Shown one piece after another: positions 1,927 to 54,115 of a stretch of 64,000 nt of DNA. Source of the stretch: Sacculina carcini. Its lineage: Eukaryota; Arthropoda; Thecostraca; Sacculinidae. The stretch spans positions 3,388,501 through 3,452,500 of the forward strand of contig OU696576.1 of the NCBI GenBank assembly GCA_916048095.2. Direction: 5' to 3'. Every line of letters starts with the position of its first letter. Position 1 is the first letter of the stretch. The position numbers and the translations under genes were made by a program. A model generated the notes under the pieces. That model had not been told where the DNA came from. It made no database searches and was given only the letters and a program-made list of their open reading frames with translations.

Positions 1927-2783
1927 AGCCCACTATAGTGCTCTCCAGTGCATTTATATATGTATAACGAATTATATTCAATATATCAATCGATTATATA
2001 TTATTTTATATATTCAATATATATTCGATTATATATTCAATATATTAATAATTTAATCGAATCATATTCATTGTATTCAGTTCGATTACAAAACAGATAT
2101 GTACTACTCACTATGTACTTTACAAGTATGTGCTGTATATACTACAAGTACAAAAAAGCTATGTATCGTGTGTGCTTACTTTATGAGTAACTTTATCAGC
2201 CAATACATCAGTGTCAGCGATTTTGCATAAATCCACTGTTCTTGGAGAGCACTCGCAATCAAATCGTGCACACACACACACTCACACATCTACAGAAACA
2301 GCACACTTTCAGAGACGGTACACTCTATCTTATGGCAAGTGTAGAGGCATCACGTGCAAATAACGCTTGTAGTTGCTAGCCATTGTAATGTAGTGTTTTC
2401 GCTAGGCTCGAAGTGGCAGCTATGGGAGTCTGGGGTGTGTGTGTACTACGCCAGGCGGTGTGTGTTTGTTTCCATAATGTTCCGGGTATATTTTGATGTA
2501 TAAAGTTTAATCGTTGTTTGTGACACCAATACAGAGTATACAGTTGGTTTTGGATAACAATACAATTGGTTTTGGATCTTTCTTAATCACCAACAACATA
2601 ACATTACATGGTGGCAGCGTAAACATGTTTCCATGCGATGATTTGAGCATTAGGCTGATTTGAAGTTTTTTTGAGGTTCTGTTATTCTTTGCCGGTTTGA
2701 GCAAGATTTTCGAACGTTTCTCGTGGTGTTCTGGTTGCGGAAACATTTGTTGACTTCATTGCTGAGATTTTTGTATCGTCATT

Positions 2784-6779: not shown

Positions 6780-7588
6780 TGTTTTCGCTAGGCTCGAAGT
6801 GACAGCTTTGGGGGTCTGGGGTGTGTGTGTACTACGCCAGGCGGTGTGTGTTTGTTTCCATAATGTTTCGGGTATATTTTGATGTATAAAGTTTAATCGT
6901 TGTTTGTGAACCCAATACAGAGTTGGTTTGGGATCTTTATTAATCACCAACAACATAACATTACAGCCATCTATACTATGCTAAATATTGTATGGTATAT
7001 ATTTTTGTATATGGTGCCTATTTGCTTGTACGGAGTAGTGTGAGTGTGTGTATGTTGTATGCACGTTCTATGAGCGAGCGTAATATCTCCAAAAAGTGAA
7101 CTGTCGCAGTGCGCGCCATAGGGCAATTGTTTGCGCAGAATGATTGTGTTTGTTGGTGAATGTGTTTTAGTGGGCCATGTTGTGTTGTGATTGTGTTGGT
7201 TTGTGATATCTTGCTTTTTCGCTTGAATTCAAGTACACATGCTGCTTGAATTCATTGAAATGTTTTCTTGTTGGCGCGCGTGAGACTGCAATGCTCCCGC
7301 ACACCCGTCTTCTAATACGTCTTTTGTCTTTTATGTTGGGTGTTCTACAAGCTAACCATCCTTTAACAGAGTGACCATATAACAGTTTACAGTTGAACAG
7401 GTCCTCCTAACGTTCTCAAAATAAAAATATTGAGAAAAAACAATTAGATAAGTCATTAAATACTGGTCATTTCAATTTGTAAATATATAAATCCAATTGT
7501 GACAGTTTAAATTCAGTTGGGTCAATTCTAAATTCAGTTGGAACAATTTTGATTTCAGTTGGGACAAATGAGATTGTAAAAGGTATAG

Positions 7589-22200: not shown

Positions 22201-23340
22201 TATATATATATATACTGGAGATTGAGATTCGCTGGAGATTGGTGGTCATATTGTTGAGGATGCAGCGTGGCAGCGGAAGGAGTCCGATGTTCACCACATC
22301 AATGTGGCCGAGCTGGAAGGGGTATTGAAAGGATTGAATTTGGCTGTCAAGTGGAATTTGACCGATGTGGAAGTACGCACTGATTCAGCAACGGTATTGG
22401 GCTGGGTCAACACAGCCTTAAATAAGGAGAGAAGAATCAAGACAAAAGGTTCAGCTCAAGCTCCTTCACCAAGTCACACAGTATACCCAACCGTCGCTTT
22501 ATCAGAAGCTCAGCTGCACCTTTTGTCTTGATTCTTCTCTCCTTATTAAAAGGCTGCGTTGACCCAGCCCAATACCGTTGCTGAATCAGTGCGTACTTCC
22601 ACATCGGTCAAATTCCAATTGACAGCCAAATTCAATCCTTTCAATACCCCTTCCAGTTCAGCCACATTGATGTGGTGAACATCGGAATCCTTCCGCTGCC
22701 ACGCTGCATCCTCAACAATATGACCACCAATCTCCAGCGCCACGCCAACGGCCAAGTTGCTAGCGTCACACCACACCACCCCCTTCTTTGTTTTTGGCAC
22801 ATTCCACACACCCCCTACAGGGTCACCACGCCTTACTCTATCTAACACTTCTCGAATCATTTTCACAACATTGTTCAAGTTCAAGTTCAAGTTCAAATTG
22901 TATTTTTTCCACAAGCAAATAACAAATAGCATAACAACAATAAATAAAGAAAGTGGATATAGAGTCTGCTGAGACATTGTCTCTTTTGCAGACTTATGTA
23001 ATAATGATAATTTTGTTCCAACATGAAACATTGACAAGTGATTAAATAATGATTATATGATACAGTGATTAAACATTGTTATATATATGAGTTGTTAAAT
23101 AAGTATATATATAACAATGTGTGATGTATGACACGCTATATTATATAGATTTAATGGCACAACAATATTACCAGATACACAATTCATAGTACTCTCTCAC
23201 ACATATTGAGTGTGACAAAGAATTGACAATGACAATAATGACGATGACAAAAATTCAACACTGCACACGAGTCGAGAATATGTTAAAATCACATTTTCGG
23301 CATGCCAGCACGCTATCATGCAGAGGTACAACATCATACG

Positions 23341-25502: not shown

Positions 25503-26210
25503 CTATTGGAAAATGATATCGGATTGTATGATATAGTTGGAGGTGTTTTTCTCTATATTATTGGTCCATATGTGATCGATGAGTGCAGCCGAGTTCTTTG
25601 ATATTCTGGTGGGCTTTGTAGTCACTGGCCATAAGGAAAAGGTTAACATTAAGTTTGTAAAATCTTTGAATTGAGTGTTTCGTATTAGAAGGTTTATATT
25701 CCAATCTCCGAACAGAAAAATGGCATGATAAGATTTTCTAGAGACTTCGTTGAGTATATCGTTGATTCTTTCAAGAAATTTATTAAAATTCCCGTTCGGC
25801 GGCCTATAGATTGAAGCAAGAAAAAATTTGCTCTTACCTCGCTCAATTTCTACACTTACACATTCAAATTCAGGTTCACTCAGACACAATTCGTGTAACT
25901 GGGTGGATATATGTTTGGCATGCACATACATGGCTACTCCACCACCATTTATGTTTCTGTGAACCCCGTACATTGTGTAGTTGGGAATTTTATATATCTG
26001 CGCTATGTCTTTGTCAAGTCTCGTTTCGGCAAATCCCATTACATCAAATTTATGCTCACTGACAGATATAACTTCGTCTAGGTAGTCATACAAATTAGAG
26101 GGAATGCTCACGATATTCAATGCAACGATCGAGAAGGTGGATACGTCATAGGTCGTTAAACTGACATCCAATGTTGCGTATTGAGATTCAGGAATTGATT
26201 TCATTTCTAC
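25503..26210 (-). pseudogene. Endonuclease domain of the CR1-like LINE
   Basis: The frame begins inside LTR-element sequence (26384-26211 is read-through) and enters LINE coding with IVSIPSNLYDYLDEVISVSE, VMGFAETRLDK (the catalytic glutamate block), INGGGVAMYVH, FFLASIYRPPNG, AIFLFGDWNINLL and SAALIDHIWTN. These are the apurinic/apyrimidinic endonuclease signatures. It ends at a stop at 25503, just before the RT frame, and the SDH block is altered (IIQSDIIFQ). Confidence 0.8.
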
Positions 26211-26294
26211 ACCGACCAGTCTGTCCCAATGTCCGCCATGCGCTCTGCGTTTAATGAAACTGCAGGCCAGTCTCAACCACCTCGCCACCGGGTA

Positions 26295-27036
26295 ATGGCA
26301 AAAATTTCCCAAGATATGATAAAGCCATTCAATGGAGACGGAGATGTTTTCGCATGGATAAAAAAAAGTGCGACTTGTTGCCAAGCTCCAGAAAGTGGAT
26401 GATGTGGCGAGTTTGCTCCCACTGTACTTGGAAGGCTCTGCGCTTGCAACATATTTAGAAATGGAGGAGAATTATCAGGAAGATGCTGACAGAATCGAAG
26501 AAAAACTAAAGGAAGTATTTTCAGACAGTGTCTTCATTGCGTATCATAAATTGACCAGAATGAGATGGACAGGTGAGCCCATTGATGTGTTTTCAAATGA
26601 AATAAGGCGGTTGGCTGGACTGTCAGGATTTGTTGGAGAAGGTCTTGATAATATTGTAAAGTTAAAATTCGTGAACGGATTTCCTGATGACATCAGCAAG
26701 CAGTTGCAGCAGATCAACAATGTGGGGTGTGTTCCATTGGGCGAAGTGCTTAGCAGGGCCAGAGTACTTGCTGTGAGAGGAGATAGCTCCGTGAACGCAT
26801 TGGCGGCGAACAACACGCTGACTGACAGAAGAAAAACTGCAGTGCGCCGGAACTCATTCGAAGACAAATGCGTCGTACGCGGAGAGCCTCATATAGCGCG
26901 AAGTGGCAGCCATAGAAAATCAGTGACGTGTTTTAGATGTGGCAAGGAAGGCCACATTGCAGTTCAGTGCACCGCTGATCCGGGAAACGACCAAAGGGGA
27001 ACTGGTGCGCCAGCAGTCACCCCTTTGACTCACTGA
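26295..27036 (+). pseudogene. gag of the divergent LTR element (one frameshift)
   Basis: An ATG at 26295 opens a capsid-like frame. A run of eight A's at 26360-26367 shifts it, and the protein continues in the next frame from about 26368 to the stop at 27034-27036. Visible features are LLPLYLEGSALATYLEMEE, FIAYHKLTRMRWTGEPIDVF and a CCHC zinc knuckle, CFRCGKEGHIAVQC, near 26931. One base too many in the A run explains the break; sequencing error there is possible. The stop of gag overlaps the ATG of pol at 27036. Confidence 0.8.
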
Positions 27037-29870
27037 TGGCGCAGCCTGGCAGACTGCCTCTGGTCAATGTTTTAGTTGTAGGCAGAAATGTTCGGGCATT
27101 AGTGGATACCGGCTGTTCAACAGTTGTCGTGACGACGGAGATTGTTAAGAATTATGAGGCAGGTGGTTTCATAAGTGCGTTTGACGGGAGGCAGGTGCAA
27201 TGCCGAGGGAAGACCTGGGTCAAATTGACAGTGGAAGGCAGAAGCGTGAGAGTGCGTGCGATGGTAGTTGATAAGATAGTGAACGACATAGATTGTGTAT
27301 TAGGGATGGATGTGATTGATTGTCTTGGTGGTGTATTTGTGACAAATAATGGTGTCAAATTTGGGGATTGCAGTTGTGTTGCTGTGGGTGCTGAGACACC
27401 AGCACCAGGCAATATAACATACCATAGTAAGAAAAATGAGAGTAAACAATTGAGTATCAACGATAAAGACTTTTTCACGTCGTTCGATGGAGAAAAATGG
27501 GAGGTAGAATGGTTTGTGAAGGAAGACTCCCCAGTGTTAAATAACTCTATCGGCTGCTACAATCAAACAATAAAGTCAGAAACACGTCACGAGTTTGACA
27601 CCGAAGTGAAACGTTGGGTAGCAGAAGGGATTCTGGTGCCGTGGACAGGCAACACAAAGTCGGGTGTATTACCGCTGCTTGCAGTGGTGCAACCGACGAA
27701 GAGAAAAGTTCGCCCAGTACTCGATTTTCGAGAATTAAATGAATATGTGAGTAGTCATACGGGTGATGAATTCATCGATATATGTAATGAAAAATTGAGG
27801 AAATGGAGGTGCATCGATGGTCCTGCGTCTGTGGTAGATTTGAAGACGGCATATCTACAAGTTCACGTGTCGAAGAAATTATGGAAATATCAGTTGGTCA
27901 AATACCGCGGCAGAGTCTACACTATGACGAGAATGGGTTTTGGGTTATGTTCAGCCCCTAGAGTAATGACGAAAATTGTGCGAACGGTGCTGCAGCAGTC
28001 AGATGTGATTGAGCGTGCTACCGACTCATACATCGACGATATTATCGTGAATGAGACCATAATTTCAGTGAAGGCAGTGGTGCAACATCGACAGAAATAT
28101 GGATTGGTGGCAAAACAGCCAGTGCCAATTGAGGAATGTGCTGTGCTGGGCATGAAAGTGTTCAGAAACATAAATGGTGCACTTGTGTACAAAAGAGGAA
28201 ATGAAGTTCCACGGTCGGTTGATAAATTAACAAAAAGGGAATTGTTCTCGTTGTGCGGAAAATTGGTAGGCCATTACCCGGTGGCGAGGTGGTTGAGACT
28301 GGCCTGCAGTTTCATTAAACGCAGAGCGCATGGCGGACATTGGGACAGACTGGTCGGTGACAATGTTATGAAAATGATTCGAGAAGTGTTAGATAGAGTA
28401 AGGCGTGGTGACCCTGTAGGGGGTGTGTGGAATGTGCCAAAAACAAAGAAGGGGGTGGTTTGGTGTGACGCTAGCAACTTGGCCGTTGGCGTGGCGCTGG
28501 AGATTGGTGGTCATATTGTTGAGGATGCAGCGTGGCAGCGGAAGGAGTCCGATGTTCACCACATCAATGTGGCTGAACTGGAAGGGGTATTGAAAGGATT
28601 GAATTTGGCTGTCAAGTGGAATTTGACCGATGTGGAAGTACGCAATGATTCAGCAACGGTATTGGGCTGGGTCAACGCAGCCTTAAATAAGGAGAGAAGA
28701 ATCAAGACAAAAGGTGCAGATGAGCTTCTGATAAAGCGACGGTTGGGTATACTGTGTGACTTGGTGGAGGAGCTCGAGCTGAATTTTAAGATTGTGCGAG
28801 TTCCCACTACGGTAAATAAAGCAGACGAACTGATCCGCGTCAAGAAAGAATGGCTGGCAATGCTCGTAGAAAGTGAAGAAGAGAATCATTGCACCGCGTC
28901 GAGTTCTAGTGTATGTGCTATGACGTCGGAAAGACTCGCTGAACTCCATGAATTACATCATATGGGTGTGGATAGAACACTTTATTTAGCGCGACAAGAG
29001 GATCCAAGAGTGACACGAGACCAAACACAACGTGTTGTTCAATGCTGTGTTAGATGCCAATCAATCGATCCAGCACCAGTCCAGCACACGTCCGGAAGCC
29101 TGAATGTGAGCAAGTCATGGTCAAGATTGGCCATTGACGTGACTAATTACCGCCAGCAAACATATCTGTCAATTGTGGACTGCGGTCCAGGTCGGTTCGC
29201 CATCTGGCGAGAGTTGCGTGCTGATAACGCAGAGCTGGTGTGTGCCATTCTCGATGAGATATTCAGGGAAAGAGGTCCAGTTCTCGAGCTGCTCATGGAC
29301 AATGGTATGGTGTTTAGATCAGAGCAAATGAAAAGACTGATGGAAAGGTGGAAGATACAACCCTATTTCAGAGCTGCATATCGCCCAAGTGGTAACGGCA
29401 TTGTAGAGCGTAACCATCGTACCATCAAAGCTTTGGCAGATAAAGCTCAAGTGACACCGTTGTCGGCAGTGTTTTGGTACAATATGACGCCACGCGAGGG
29501 CTTGACTCACAATTCGGTACCACATAAACACGTCCATGCATACGAGTGGAGAAATCCATCGTTAGAAATGCCGCCGAGACGCGAGTCCACTCAGTCTTCC
29601 ATCAGCGTAGGGGATGAAGTTTGGGTGATGCCCCCCGTTCCTAAATGTACAACGCAGTGGACGCGCGGTAGAGTAACAGACATCAATTCGCCAATCAACA
29701 TTTATGTAGACGGGATGCCGCGACATATATTGGATGTGCGGCCGGCAAGAGACGCTCATGACCAACGCCACGTTCCGACAGATGCAGAGCTCGACGATGT
29801 GGAATTGCCTCGGCGCTCAACAAGACAACGGAAGACCCCGGCGTGGCTAGATGATTATGTTACTGATTGA
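27036..29870 (+). CDS. Pol polyprotein of the divergent LTR element (944 codons, intact)
   Basis: One open frame carries, in order: an aspartic protease (RALVDTGCSTVVV, residues about 23-36); reverse transcriptase with RPVLDFRELNEYV (about 226-238), ASVVDLKTAYLQVHV, MTRMGFGLCSAPRVM and the catalytic SYIDDIIVNE (about 330-339); RNase H with VWCDASNLAVGVAL, INVAELEGVLKGLNLAV and VEVRNDSATVLGWVN; an integrase zinc-binding segment (HHMGVD...CCVRCQ); and the core with SRLAIDVTNY, LLMDNGMVFRSEQM and RPSGNGIVERNHRTIKAL. The three integrase acidic residues are present. RNase H carries N in the DVEVRNDSA block where the 22-kb copy has T; the neighbouring D is kept. It could still be functional if expressed. 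Confidence 0.92.
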   Translation: MAQPGRLPLVNVLVVGRNVRALVDTGCSTVVVTTEIVKNYEAGGFISAFDGRQVQCRGKTWVKLTVEGRSVRVRAMVVDKIVNDIDCVLGMDVIDCLGGVFVTNNGVKFGDCSCVAVGAETPAPGNITYHSKKNESKQLSINDKDFFTSFDGEKWEVEWFVKEDSPVLNNSIGCYNQTIKSETRHEFDTEVKRWVAEGILVPWTGNTKSGVLPLLAVVQPTKRKVRPVLDFRELNEYVSSHTGDEFIDICNEKLRKWRCIDGPASVVDLKTAYLQVHVSKKLWKYQLVKYRGRVYTMTRMGFGLCSAPRVMTKIVRTVLQQSDVIERATDSYIDDIIVNETIISVKAVVQHRQKYGLVAKQPVPIEECAVLGMKVFRNINGALVYKRGNEVPRSVDKLTKRELFSLCGKLVGHYPVARWLRLACSFIKRRAHGGHWDRLVGDNVMKMIREVLDRVRRGDPVGGVWNVPKTKKGVVWCDASNLAVGVALEIGGHIVEDAAWQRKESDVHHINVAELEGVLKGLNLAVKWNLTDVEVRNDSATVLGWVNAALNKERRIKTKGADELLIKRRLGILCDLVEELELNFKIVRVPTTVNKADELIRVKKEWLAMLVESEEENHCTASSSSVCAMTSERLAELHELHHMGVDRTLYLARQEDPRVTRDQTQRVVQCCVRCQSIDPAPVQHTSGSLNVSKSWSRLAIDVTNYRQQTYLSIVDCGPGRFAIWRELRADNAELVCAILDEIFRERGPVLELLMDNGMVFRSEQMKRLMERWKIQPYFRAAYRPSGNGIVERNHRTIKALADKAQVTPLSAVFWYNMTPREGLTHNSVPHKHVHAYEWRNPSLEMPPRRESTQSSISVGDEVWVMPPVPKCTTQWTRGRVTDINSPINIYVDGMPRHILDVRPARDAHDQRHVPTDAELDDVELPRRSTRQRKTPAWLDDYVTD

Positions 29871-45057: not shown

Positions 45058-45639
45058 GTCAGTACAGTGCATGTGTGTAAACTTTATTCACATGTGTTTA
45101 TTTAGTACATGTGTGTGTGTGTGTGTGGTAATGTATGTATACACCGATTTGTTGATATGGGATAAGATCTTTTAGGCTCGGACTGTCCCGTTTCGGTAGC
45201 CACAATTGTCCAGCTTTGTCTTAAATGTGATAATACTTTCACTATCGACTACTTCTTCCCTTAATTTATTCCATTTATCCACGCATCTATACGGAAAACT
45301 TAACTTTTTCAAATTACTGCAGCACCTAGTTTTTCAGTTTTATTTTGTGTCCTCTTCTTACACTGGATTGTGCAAGGTCCCCTCGTTCTCGTCTTTTGTA
45401 ACCAATGTAACCAGTCCCAATTTTTCCAATCTTTCTCGATATGTTAATTATTCAGCTCTGGTATCAACTTAGTTGCTATCCTCTGAGCCCTCTCCAATTT
45501 TGCAACTTCTTTTTTCATATGTGGTGACCAAACAATTTTTGCGTATTCCGATTTGGGTCTTATTATTATTGACACTATTACACTATTCTTATTACACTAT
45601 TATTTTTTCTGAGGGTTTCTATACCTTTTACAATTTCAT

Positions 45640-45793
45640 TTGTCCCAACTGAAATCAAAGTTGTCCCAACTGAAATCAAAATTGTCCCAACTGAAATCAA
45701 AATTGTCCCAACTGAAATCAAAATTGTCCCAACTGAAATCAAAGTTGTCCCAACTGAAATCAAAGTTGTCCCAACTGAAATCAAAATTGTCCC
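45640..45793 (+). repeat. 21-bp tandem repeat, left tip of the foldback element
   Basis: About seven near-identical units of TTGTCCCAACTGAAATCAAAA. They differ mainly at the last bases (AAA-G or AAA-A). Confidence 0.95.
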
Positions 45794-46840
45794 AGCTAGA
45801 ACCACAATGTATGTTATTGATTTTACATTAAATATCAAACTTAATTGTTATCAGTACATTTTATTGTATTTCACATGGAAAAATTAGCATTAGTCGTAAA
45901 ACATAGATATATACTACTTACTATGTACTATACAATTATGTGTTACGGTATGTACTACAATTACAATGCAGATATGTACCGTACGTACTTACTTTATGAG
46001 GAACTCTATCAGCCAATATAGCAATGTCAGCGTATATACCACCAGCGCGTGTACTTAAATTCTAGGAACAAAGCAAGATATCACAACTCAACACAATCAC
46101 AACGCAACATGGCCCACTAAAACACCTTCACTGACAAACACGCACGAACGTTCTGCGCAAACAACTGCCCTATGGCGCGCACTGCCCAGCCCCCTGCATC
46201 CCCCTGCTCGCTCATAGCACGTGCATACAACATACATACACTCACACTACCTCACACAGACAAATAGACACCATACACACATATATATACACATACACAC
46301 GTGATGCCTGAACACTTGCCATAAGACGGAATGTACCGTCTCTGAAAGTATGATGTTTCTGTAGGTGTGTGTGTGTGTGCACGATTTGATCGCGAGTGCT
46401 CTCCGAGAACAGTGGCTCTATACGCTGACACTGATATTGGCTGATAGATTGCGCGTCATAGGGCAGTTGTTTGCGCAGAAAGTTCGAGCGTATTTGTTAG
46501 TGAAGGTGTTTTAGTGGGTCATGTTTCGTTGTGATTGTGTTGAGTTGAGATATCTTGCTTTGTTCCTAGAATTTAAGTATGCGCGCTGGTGGTATATACG
46601 CTGACATTTATATATTGGCTGATAGAGTTCCTCATAAAGTAAGTACGCACGGTACATATCTGCATTGTAATTGTAGTACATACCGTAGCACATAATTGTA
46701 TAGTACATAGTAAGTAGTATATATCTATGTTTTACGACTAATGCTAATTTTTTCATGTGAAATACAATAAAATGTACTGATAACAATCAAGTTTGATATT
46801 TAATGTAAAACCAATAACATACATTGTGATTCTAGCTGGG

Positions 46841-47034
46841 ACAATTTTGATTTCAGTTGGGACAATTTTGATTTCAGTTGGGACAATTTTGATTTCAGTT
46901 GGGACAATTTTGATTTCAGTTGGGACAACTCTGATTTCAGTTGGGACAACTTTGATTTCAGTTGGGACAACTTTGATTTCAGTTGGGACAATTTTGATTT
47001 CAGTTGGGACAACTTTGATTTCAGTTGGGACAAA
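46841..47034 (+). repeat. 21-bp tandem repeat, right tip of the foldback element
   Basis: About nine units of TTTTGATTTCAGTTGGGACAA, the reverse complement of the left array but with two more copies. Confidence 0.95.
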
Positions 47035-48146
47035 TGAAATTGTAAAAGGTATAGATCCAAATAGTTAAAAACGTGTCTTATCTGCGCTGTGGTCCTGTAT
47101 GCCGTACTCACAGGTTTTCCTATGTGCTTCTCCGCCGACAATGTATTATGCGCACTACACCTAGATCCTTCTCCTCCTCAACCTCCGATATTGAATCATT
47201 ACCTATCAGATATTGAAAATCGGGCCTATATATGATTTTCCTATTTTCATCACATGCCACTTTGTGTTGTTAAACTCCATGTTCCATTTGTTTGCCCATA
47301 TGGGAATATTTTCCAGGTCTTGCTGTAGCTTCATGCAGTCATCAATTGTTCTCTCCGGCCTCAAGGGTTTAGCATCGTCTTCAAATAAAATCATGTACGA
47401 CTAGTACTGAGCCTTGAGGCGCTCCGCTGGTCACACTCCTTCAACTTGATTGAGCTCCTCTGACACAAGTGGACATTTTTCGATCCGTTAAGTAATCGCT
47501 CATCCATTCATGAATTATTCCTTCTATGCCATCCACAACGTTTTGCTTCCATATTAGTATCTGCAGCGGTACCTTGTCAAAAGCCTTTTTCATATCCAGG
47601 TAGACACAGTCCACCCACCCTTCTCGTTCCTGTATTATATCAATTACTTTTGAATATTAGTTCCACAAATTTGTTTGACACGACTTTATCTGTCTGAATC
47701 CATATTGCCCCTCTGACAGGATGTTATGTCGCTCTAAATACTCGACTCATCTTTTGCTGATAATTCGTTCGCACAGTTCATACAGCACACAAGTCAGTGA
47801 CACAGGTCTATCATTTCGATGACCATTTCTCGCGCCACTTTTATATATTGGTGTGATCCACGCAGTCTTCCACTCCTGGGTACTCTTCCAATGTGTAATG
47901 ATTTTTCCAATATGTCGAAAATCGGCTCCAATAGCTGCTCTTTGCATTCTTTTCAAGTATTTCCGGATATTCCGTCAGGTCCGATAGATTTCCTGTCATC
48001 GAGCTCGTTTAGCAAACTTAACACTTCTTGTCTAGTTACTGCAATGTTCTGTAGAGTATTGTCATTAGTTATTGTCTGTTCATATGTAAATTCACTTTCC
48101 TTGGTGAATACCTGCTGGAGTGTCTCGTTCATTATTTCACATATGG

Positions 48147-51732: not shown

Positions 51733-54115
51733 CAGTGGTTCTTAACCTTTTCTGTCCCGTTACCCCACATGAATTTCCTTGGCACCTCCATTACCCCATT
51801 CAAATTCGAAATAACAAAACACTATTGAATACTTCAGAAACATTTATTATGCCAACGAAAAATCAGCCAACATTCGAATATGGAGAAATGAATCAGTGAG
51901 ACATTTTTCACGACAAATTGGAAAAAAAACTAATGAGAGACCTGACACTGTTTCACAGCCATCAAACGGCTGAACCGTGGGGTGTAAGTAGTGAGGCAAC
52001 ACCTCAAGTCCCCATCAATCACAAGCCTGTTGCGAGATTTCGTCTTCATGGTCAACATCACCAAAAACCCCGCTTCACATCGATAAGTTGATGCCGCTTG
52101 GACAAGAACAGTGAGAGCTTCCTTTGCCAGATGAGGATAGTCCTCCCTTTGCGTCGCCCAGAAGGAGACCAAACTTTCACCAGCTTCAAAATCCGTCCTC
52201 AACTGGTTGTCTTCTCTCAGCTTCAGGAACTCCAGCTTCGTTTGAACGGCGGTATCTGGAATTGTGTTTTCACGCACCGTGAAGGGTCGCAAGATCCAGG
52301 GCTGATTTCGTCGTTCTTCGAGACCTGGGAAGTACTCCTCAATTGCTTCTGTCACAGCGACAAGATGTGCCGAGATCTCTTCTCGGAAGGAAAATTGGAT
52401 ATTCGGAACAGCTTCAAGTAATCCAGTCAACTCCAGGAAAGAGGACGTATCACCATCATTGACGCGCCTTGTGTACAACTCTAGCTTTTTCTTGAAATCC
52501 GCAACCTTGTCCATAGCGATTGGTATGAAAGTTTGATTGCCCTGCAGGCAAACGTTCAGGGCATTTACCTCAGAGAAAAAGTCGCACAAATACGCAACTT
52601 TCGTCAGAAACCCATGATCATTCATCTTCTCCTGAAGCCGATTCTCTTTCCCAGTACGAGCCCTTTCCAGAAAGAGAGCGACCTCCTCCCTAAGATCCAA
52701 TACACGCGTCAGGACATTCCCGCGGGAAAGCCACCGTACCTCCGTATGATACAAGAGATTTACGTGTTCCGCTCCCATTTCTTCGCACAGTTTTCGAAAG
52801 ATGCGACAATTCGTTGCGCTTGTCCGGATATGGTTCACGATGTTCACCACGTCTGACAGCACATCTTTTAGCGAAGCAGGAAGGGTTTTCATCGCCAAAG
52901 AATACCGGTGGATCATGCAATGGTTGAAGATGACATGAGGTGCAACGTTTTTGACATAGGCTTTGAACCCAGACCTGCAGCCTGTCATGGATGGCGCACC
53001 ATCAGTGCAAACACCAACAAGGCCCTTCCAGTCGAGCTCATGTTTGGTAATGAAGGTTTCCACAATTTTGAACACGTCCTCTCCTCGTGTGGTGGTGGTC
53101 AGCGGTTCGGAGAAAAGATACTCTTCCTTGAGATCGGTTCCGCTGAGATAACGGGCGAACACCATTAATTGTGAACAGCTGTCGACGTCTGTGGACTCAT
53201 CCAGTTGTAAGGAGTAAAATTGGCTATCCTTGAGACTGTTCACAATCTGTTCCAAAATGTCTTGGCTCATGTCCTGAATACGGCTCCGGATCGTATCGTT
53301 GGAAAGCGAGATTGTCTTGAGCTTGTCCGCCTGCTTCTCGCCTAGCATCAGCTTCGTCGACTCTAGTACACATGGCTTTATCAGCGTCTCGCCAATAGTA
53401 TGTGGTTTCTTGGCTTCGGCGATCCGCAGGGCGATACGATAAGATGCCTCGAGTGCTGCTGTAGTCTGCTGAGCGAAGTGACCCGTAGAGTCAATGCGTC
53501 CAGCCTTCAGCGCGGTTTCGCGTCTTTTGAAATAATCCAAGCTCTGCCCTTTAAGATGATTATGTGCTGATTCCAAGTGAGCCTTCAGTTTGCTCGGCTT
53601 CATGCTCTCTTGCGTCAGAACCTTATTACAGACAACGCATTGCGGCTTCTCGACTCCCTGCTGGACAATGCTGGTGAAACCCATTCGCAGGAATGCTTCA
53701 TTGTACGACCGTTTTCTTGACATTGTTCACGATTCAATCTGCAAAGGAATGAACACAAAATCAGAAATCACAAAATAAAACACACGGACAGTGTAGCACA
53801 GTAAAGCACCATGATCGGCCATAATTCACTCGATGTATGTAGTAATAGCACAAAATACGAGAGCAAAAGGTTTGCCCGGGTGAACTACTGTGTGTGGCCT
53901 GGGCGGTGATAGTGACGCGGCTATGATTGGCTGGAGGGGCAGACCAAAACAATGGGGAGTGGTAGCCGCGCTGCTATTGGCTAGCCTGCCACGGGGCTCC
54001 TCAATTGTCCCCACGTTGATGTCAAAATCAACTGTCCCCATTACCCTGCCATTACCCCCAGCAAAACCCCAAATTACCCCACTTGGGGTAATTACCCACA
54101 GGTTAAGAACCACTG
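51733..54115 (-). mobile_element. hAT DNA transposon, apparently complete
   Basis: The 16-bp terminal inverted repeats CAGTGGTTCTTAACCT are perfect (51733-51748 and, reversed, 54100-54115). The 2383-bp element contains one long intact transposase frame. A subterminal palindrome TTACCCC.ACTT.GGGGTAA lies near 54074-54092. ATTCAAT occurs on both sides (51721-51727 and 54120-54126) a few bases off the ends; a clean 8-bp duplication is not seen, so the exact ends or post-insertion changes are uncertain. Confidence 0.9.
51930..53723 (-). CDS. hAT transposase (ZBED5/FAM200-like), intact 597 codons
   Basis: It begins with a BED-type zinc finger ([20 protein letters not shown] then [10 protein letters not shown], residues about 27-56). 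The RNase H-like core has [19 protein letters not shown] (about 168, first acid), [20 protein letters not shown] (about 235, second acid) and [20 protein letters not shown] (about 324). The C-terminal dimerisation region ends with [20 protein letters not shown] (third acidic residue in CEAGF). Length and domain order match the ZBED5/FAM200/SCAND3-type hAT family. No stop or frameshift is present. Full terminal repeats suggest a recent arrival or an active element; domestication is unlikely because the TIRs remain. Confidence 0.93.

What the first reader, a model, noticed from the sequence alone, without database searches (positions are those of the whole stretch)
45619..47054. Foldback element with 21-bp tandem-repeat tips and no recognisable transposase
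The sequence shows arms of about 555 and 604 bp in inverted orientation, terminal CTATACC/GGTATAG, tandem 21-bp units just inside the ends (about 7 and 9 copies), and a 277-bp gene-less loop. This layout recalls Foldback/Galileo elements, but I recognise no family with this repeat unit. Unequal copy number in the two tips suggests slippage or recombination.
Basis: partly seen in the sequence, partly recalled or inferred. Interest (0 to 1): 0.75.

Follow-up and report, generated by a model that had tools for sequence, protein, structure and literature searches.

The report
Foldback transposon with 21-base repeat tips
The element is a gene-less jumping element whose two ends carry rows of a 21-base repeat, and related elements in the same genome pair each family of jumping enzyme with its own version of that repeat, so the rows are probably where the enzyme grips the DNA.

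Summary
Window 45619-47054 is a foldback with phased 21-bp arrays at both tips (7 and 9 internal units) and no gene. It is not a fused satellite: the host genome holds 376 places with its end pattern and two exact uninterrupted copies of its insertion site, which show insertion of TACC...GGTA at CTAG with duplication of TA. The flanking C and G belong to the target. A relative with the same ends and units (L051) carries an uninterrupted IS630/Tc1-mariner-type transposase frame, one of 117 matches in the genome. Seven array types were seen in the loci fetched. In a 16-row transposase tree labelled by array type, the three types with several rows (A 2, C 5, F 6) each form one clade. The period is 21 bp in all seven types, while the unit sequence differs. 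The tip is itself unit zero: its inner half follows the family unit, its outer half is shared. Best reading: a non-autonomous Tc1/mariner-type transposon whose ends are arrays of transposase binding sites two helical turns apart. Binding is inferred, not shown. New variant of a known kind: passages read give two or three such repeats per Tc1-mariner end.

The parts
45622..47051 (.). non-autonomous foldback element (TACC...GGTA), 1430 bp
   Evidence: sequence, arms; limits set by empty copies of the site
45619..45621 (.). left target base C and left copy of the duplicated TA
47052..47054 (.). right copy of the duplicated TA and right target base G
45624..45644 (+). left tip unit (unit zero, CCTTTTACAATTTCATTTGTC), in register with the array
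45645..45791 (+). left array, 7 internal 21-bp units
45792..46181 (+). left arm inside the array
46182..46449 (.). loop, 268 bp; homologous to the non-coding stretch downstream of the transposase gene in family F copies
46450..46839 (-). right arm inside the array
46840..47028 (-). right array, 9 internal 21-bp units
47029..47049 (-). right tip unit (unit zero)
6989..7588 (-). older half element of the same lineage: inner arm pieces, three degenerate 21-bp units and one tip ending in GGTATAG
2090..2356 (.). older relic: arm and loop pieces, no tip

Best explanation
The window element is a non-autonomous derivative of a Tc1/mariner-type (IS630-Tc1-mariner) cut-and-paste DNA transposon. Each end is an array: one tip unit plus a variable number of 21-bp units in exact register. 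I infer that each unit is a transposase binding site, that 21 bp (two helical turns) puts bound subunits on one face of the DNA, that the inner half of the unit is the family-specific core read by the transposase's DNA-binding domain, and that the conserved outer half of the tip unit (CCATTTRCAA) marks the cleavage end. A transposase from a coding relative such as L051/L054 acts in trans, cuts at the tips and inserts at CTAG with duplication of TA. Shown: ends, target, duplication, unit period, correspondence of unit and transposase clade, uninterrupted coding relatives. Inferred: binding, trans-mobilisation, and that the foldback arose when the transposase side was replaced by an inverted copy of the non-coding downstream side.
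For: Empty copies of this insertion site: 16 places, 2 exact and 14 with 1-3 mismatches, reversed control 0. Second site, for the copy in L032: 1 match, reading GGTACTAGAAT, control 0. End pattern 186+190 places, control 0; all-family tip pattern 337+328, control 0. L051: same ends and units around an uninterrupted 347-codon frame with DDE_3 at 1.1e-21. IS630 model NF033545 above its cut-off in 5 of 5 proteins, one each from families A, C, D, E, F; the only PDB profile hit up to E 0.1 is Sleeping Beauty SB100X at 7e-4. Of 82 tip matches 5 had no unit; of the other 77, period 21 is best, ties included, in 74. C precedes TATA in 63 of 77 ends and A or T stands before that in 76 of 77. The tip fits its own family unit best in register 0 (102 of 147 bases, next 62; without family C 83, next 52). 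The tip's inner half matches its own family far above permuted families (62 against 45.6; 2 of 5040 permutations as high), the outer half does not (720 of 5040). Transposase tree labelled by array type only, 16 rows: 5 label changes, the minimum; A 100/100, C 98/96, F 100/100. Loop and arm of the window element match the non-coding stretch downstream of the transposase in 6 of 6 family F copies.
Against: No binding or transposition was tested. Only one uninterrupted family A transposase was seen; of the 117 matches the other three at 85% identity or more are partial and broken, so family A may no longer move. L051 matches the window element at 83-93% over its pieces: a relative, not the proven source. 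In one search the register of each family was set from the tip, so its 77 of 77 in phase is partly circular; one search is the non-circular test. The DNA-binding regions (65.3% and 63.7% mean identity between families) are only slightly more divergent than the catalytic part (68.3%) and less so than the C-terminus (56.3%): no strong sign of co-evolution. Near-copies make tree labels cluster (noted); types D, E and G have one row each. Slippage alone can grow an array.
Confidence: 0.85

Rival explanations
1. The arrays are by-products: slippage and unequal exchange multiplied a 21-bp stretch near the end, and only the outermost unit matters for transposition.
For: Unit number varies from 1 to 19 among 76 ends, and 4 family A ends count a single unit. 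Minisatellite growth inside mobile elements is well known; a review table lists satellite DNA within a Tc1-mariner MITE of Xenopus tropicalis (PMC9659126, passage).
Against: The period is 21 in seven types whose units share only 9 to 19 of 21 bases; seven columns are invariant where shuffling gives 0.06, 0 of 20000 as high (shared ancestry not removed); the tip's inner half changes with the family unit. Chance growth would not be expected to keep length, phase and pairing with the transposase clade.
Confidence: 0.12
2. Foldback/Galileo or sea-urchin TU type element of the P or another superfamily.
For: Same outline: long arms, tandem repeats near the tips, small loop.
Against: TA duplication at CTAG; the coding relatives have an IS630/Tc1-mariner-type transposase. 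FB, Galileo and TU duplicate 9, 7 and 8 bp (recalled).
Confidence: 0.02
3. A host 21-mer satellite that inverted and was spread by other means.
For: Tandem 21-mers.
Against: Copies share tips, empty sites exist, and the 100 listed of 413 two-unit matches lie in short clusters, often as opposed pairs at element spacing.
Confidence: 0.01

Closest known systems
Tc1-mariner elements with IR/DR ends: Sleeping Beauty (PMC7827188), Bari (PMC4120734, PMC4877112); passages read
   Same: TA duplication; DDE transposase; several direct repeats per end bound by the transposase. In Sleeping Beauty one subdomain reads a core at the 3' part of all repeats and the other touches the 5' part only in the outer repeats, which parallels the shared inner half and special outer half of the tip unit here.
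   Different: Two or three repeats per end (PMC4120734 passage); Bari has three of 18 nt within 250 terminal nt (PMC4877112 passage). Here 1 to 19 contiguous units of 21 bp, and a CTAG preference.
Galileo, P superfamily (PMC3688188, abstract and passages read)
   Same: Long, internally repetitive arms; further transposase binding sites were found in the tandem repeats; resembles Foldback.
   Different: THAP/P-type transposase; target duplication of 7 bp and longer repeat units (both recalled).
Tetris/DAIBAM foldback of Drosophila virilis (PMC4079207, abstract and outline read)
   Same: Apparently non-autonomous foldback with tandem repeats in the arms; its tips are shared with another element.
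   Different: Repeats of about 220 bp; the abstract names no autonomous partner.
Paramecium Sardine and Thon (PMC3408717, passages read)
   Same: Tc1/mariner-type transposase, long (500-700 bp) complex terminal repeats, TA ends.
   Different: No 21-bp array described in the passages read; DD(35)E spacing.

Membership tests
IS630-Tc1-mariner superfamily | TA target duplication | tested here: met
   two independent insertion sites against empty forms
IS630-Tc1-mariner superfamily | DDE/D transposase of the IS630/Tc1-mariner type in elements with the same ends | tested here: met
   DDE_3 and IS630 models; D151, D234, E266 in family A give DD31E; the five other rows have two more residues there, DD33E
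IS630-Tc1-mariner superfamily | terminal inverted repeats | tested here: met
IS630-Tc1-mariner superfamily | cut-and-paste movement with a footprint on excision | not tested
   no excision sites were sought
Tc1-mariner IR/DR architecture | two or three direct repeats per end bound by the transposase | tested here: inconclusive
   repeats present but 1-19 per end and contiguous; binding not testable here
Foldback (FB) / Galileo, P superfamily | 7-9 bp target duplication (recalled) | tested here: not met
   TA only
Foldback (FB) / Galileo, P superfamily | P-type (THAP) transposase in the full-length form | tested here: not met
   the coding relatives tested encode IS630-type transposase
Helitron / Helentron | no target duplication (recalled) | tested here: not met
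   TA duplicated
MITE | non-coding, sharing tips with a coding relative | tested here: met
   at 1.4 kb it is larger than typical MITEs (recalled)

The most novel reading that the evidence does not exclude
This lineage uses a distinct kind of transposon end: a polymeric, helically phased array on which transposase assembles as a row of subunits, with the array sequence changing together with the enzyme's DNA-binding domain and kept uniform by exchange between units. Families thereby become separate mobilisation groups within one genome, and unit number could tune activity copy by copy.
Probability: 0.4. Interest if true: 0.75.

Novelty: new variant of a known kind. Interest (0 to 1): 0.58.

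Why it matters
Why some transposons carry long, internally repeated ends is an old question. It was studied in Galileo, where the abstract reports that no transposition events were detected (PMC3688188). Here one genome offers several sister families with uninterrupted transposase frames, matching arrays of fixed period and different unit number, and related elements without genes. Binding specificity, the need for helical phase, the effect of unit number, and co-evolution of enzyme and site could be tested directly.

Tried and rejected
Rejected: the Tigger/pogo transposase in L053 as the partner enzyme; it lies in a nested element with its own 25-bp inverted ends and TA duplication. Rejected: retroelement frames in the long copy L032 as element genes. 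Of 23 loci around family A ends (L031-L053), tblastn with the lineage's transposases finds a full transposase only in L051; L047 has a 43-residue match in a family C fragment outside the A element; most of the others match only over about 25 residues where the L072 frame runs on into arm sequence, and five have no match.

The first tree (18 rows) included L070, which I had labelled A by transposase identity and not by array, and L069, which has no array; one search repeats it without both. Relatives in viral contigs: none of 107 pattern matches confirmed; in prokaryote genomes 1 of 115, distant and partial (L074, 31% over 58 residues), not pursued. A link between recognition-helix residues and the unit's 3' end (C and E against D and F) rests on five proteins and is not used as evidence. 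Arm identity within 11 elements is 93.4-98.9%, against a mean of 94.1% (sd 1.7, 308 pairs) between elements (L043, which holds two elements, set aside); somewhat higher within, not enough to date anything.

In print: ten paper searches. In the listings, abstracts and passages seen I met no Tc1-mariner or IS630 element with long phased arrays at its ends; the nearest is the satellite-bearing Tc1-mariner MITE of Xenopus in a review table, whose source I did not read. Repbase and subscription papers are not held.

Full report
What is there. The window holds a foldback between 45619 and 47054: arms of 542 nt at 96% complementarity around a 268-nt loop, and a 191-nt terminal inverted match at 95%. 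Just inside both ends stands an array of 21-bp units, with 7 exact cores on the left and 9 on the right. Nineteen cores occur in the window with up to 2 mismatches, against 0.46 expected from shuffles; the three outside the element (7512-7567) belong to an older half copy at 6989-7588. No ORF of 150 aa or more lies in the element.

The copies have common ends. The window lies in a 264-Mb assembly of 43 contigs. A 34-base end pattern with up to 3 mismatches occurs 186+190 times, with 0 for the reversed control. The arm search scored 40 of 724 candidate places, so its 58 matches are a lower bound. Of 21 stretches examined (20 loci and the window copy), 11 have both ends 1.4-1.54 kb apart by the end motif with up to 4 mismatches; L032 (3.3 kb) and L047 (2.1 kb) are longer, L031, L036, L044, L045, L046, L048 and L050 show one end, and L049 none.

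Target and duplication. The window flanks without the element read TTTTCTGAGGGTTTC-TA-GATCCAAATAGTTAAAAAC. This string exists twice exactly and 14 more times within 3 mismatches, control 0; these are uninterrupted copies of the repeat in which the element sits. Of the 16, 7 read CTAG at the centre, 5 CCAG and 4 CTAT. For the copy in L032, which sits in a Ty3-type polyprotein gene, the gapped flank pattern found 1 site, reading GGTACTAGAAT, control 0. So the insertion is TACC...GGTA with duplication of TA. Among 77 distinct ends of all types C precedes TATA in 63, and A or T stands before that in 76, so the preferred target is close to WCTAGW. The sample is weighted to family A (48 of 77).

The enzyme. 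Three longer copies were fetched. L053 contains a Tigger-like gene, but as a nested element with its own ends. L052 has no transposase match beyond arm sequence. L051 contains, between arms of the same family, an uninterrupted 347-codon frame on the minus strand with the DDE_3 domain. Searching with it gave 117 matches (117 of 689 candidates scored). Five proteins, one each from families A, C, D, E and F, pass NCBIfam's IS630 cut-off. Pfam DDE_3 is found in 6 of 6 lineage proteins scanned, and the only PDB sequence hit of the profile is Sleeping Beauty SB100X. The triad spacing reads DD33E in five rows and DD31E in family A.

The array is a property of the lineage. Around the transposase copies fetched (20 loci, L054-L073, of the 117 matches; L054 is the same copy as L051) the ends read TATACC(A/T)TTT(A/G)CA, with single departures such as TATACA, and continue as 21-bp arrays with different units: A TTGTCCCAACTGAAATCAAAA, C ATTTAATCCATTTGCATTTTG, D AAATCTGATTTGATCCAAATG, E AAATAGACTTAATCCAAATGA, F AATTAGATTTGAGAAAAGTGA, G TCAATTTTACAAAAGTGAAAA. 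Two of the 20 show no recognisable array (L069, L070). L063, L064, L067, L068 and L071 show one end only, and L057 one C tip and one D tip of two different elements. A seventh type, B, is a gene-less foldback (L043). On a tree of the 16 rows that have both a readable transposase frame and an array label, the label needs 5 changes, the minimum; A (2 rows) 100/100, C (5) 98/96, F (6) 100/100; D, E and G have one row each.

Anatomy of an end. Written in register, an end is TATA, a tip unit, then 1 to 19 units (76 ends). The tip fits its own family's unit far better in register 0 (102 of 147 bases) than in any other (next 62). The outer ten bases of the tip are nearly the same in all types. The inner eleven follow the family unit: 62 of 77 matches against 45.6 for permuted families, 2 of 5040 permutations as high. 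Across the seven units seven columns are invariant (positions 3, 6, 7, 9, 15, 17, 18), against 0.06 for shuffled units; T6G7 and T17T18 stand eleven bases apart. The units share ancestry, so these numbers describe the pattern and do not prove selection.

How it probably works. In Sleeping Beauty one subdomain of the DNA-binding part reads a core at the 3' side of every direct repeat, and the other touches the 5' side only in the outer repeats (PMC7827188, passages read). The tip described here shows the same division: an inner half shared with the internal units and an outer half of its own. I therefore read the array as a row of binding sites with a period of two turns. This step is inference. 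The foldback shape can also be explained: the loop and arms match the non-coding stretch downstream of the transposase in 6 of 6 family F copies, and L051 keeps left arm and loop beside its gene with only a short right arm. An inverted copy of that side in place of the gene would give the window element (inference).

A composite. In L043 an A-type element sits at the centre of the B foldback, whose halves would otherwise form a palindrome around CTAG. In one search, 11 pairs of facing B arms lie 2.0-2.3 kb end to end, and a family A tip is listed between two B tips at C2:10631562-10633066, so the composite seems to have spread as one unit. Only one of these was read in full.

Known or new. [quoted passage not shown] A review table lists satellite DNA within a Tc1-mariner MITE of Xenopus tropicalis (PMC9659126), whose source I did not read. 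In ten searches I saw no report of a Tc1-mariner or IS630 element with long phased arrays at its ends, but only open-licence papers are held and most were seen as listings. I therefore call it a new variant of a known kind.

Noticed in passing
L043:2907-4996: Foldback B carries a family A element at its palindromic centre; B arms elsewhere keep the same distance (11 pairs), which suggests that the composite multiplied as a unit. B itself stands at the end of another A element.
   Followed up: partly
L053:1106-3599: Tigger/pogo-type element (DDE_1, HTH_Tnp_Tc5) nested in a family A arm, with 25-bp inverted ends that include the TA.
   Followed up: partly
window 22550-22874 and 28360-28684: 325-bp inverted repeat, 98% complementary, 5.5 kb apart, with further inverted pieces at 22230-22419 and 26210-26299; origin not examined.
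   Followed up: no
window 51930-53723 (-): 597-aa open frame with a weak hAT dimerisation match (4.9e-4, below the curated cut-off).
   Followed up: no
window 27036-29870 (+): 944-aa open frame with integrase, protease and reverse transcriptase type domains and DUF7047, a Ty3-like retroelement; described only.
   Followed up: no
L044 and L045 (C6:1584800-1606500): Two family A copies about 15 kb apart share the same left flank: probably a segmental duplication rather than two insertions.
   Followed up: no
   Followed up: no
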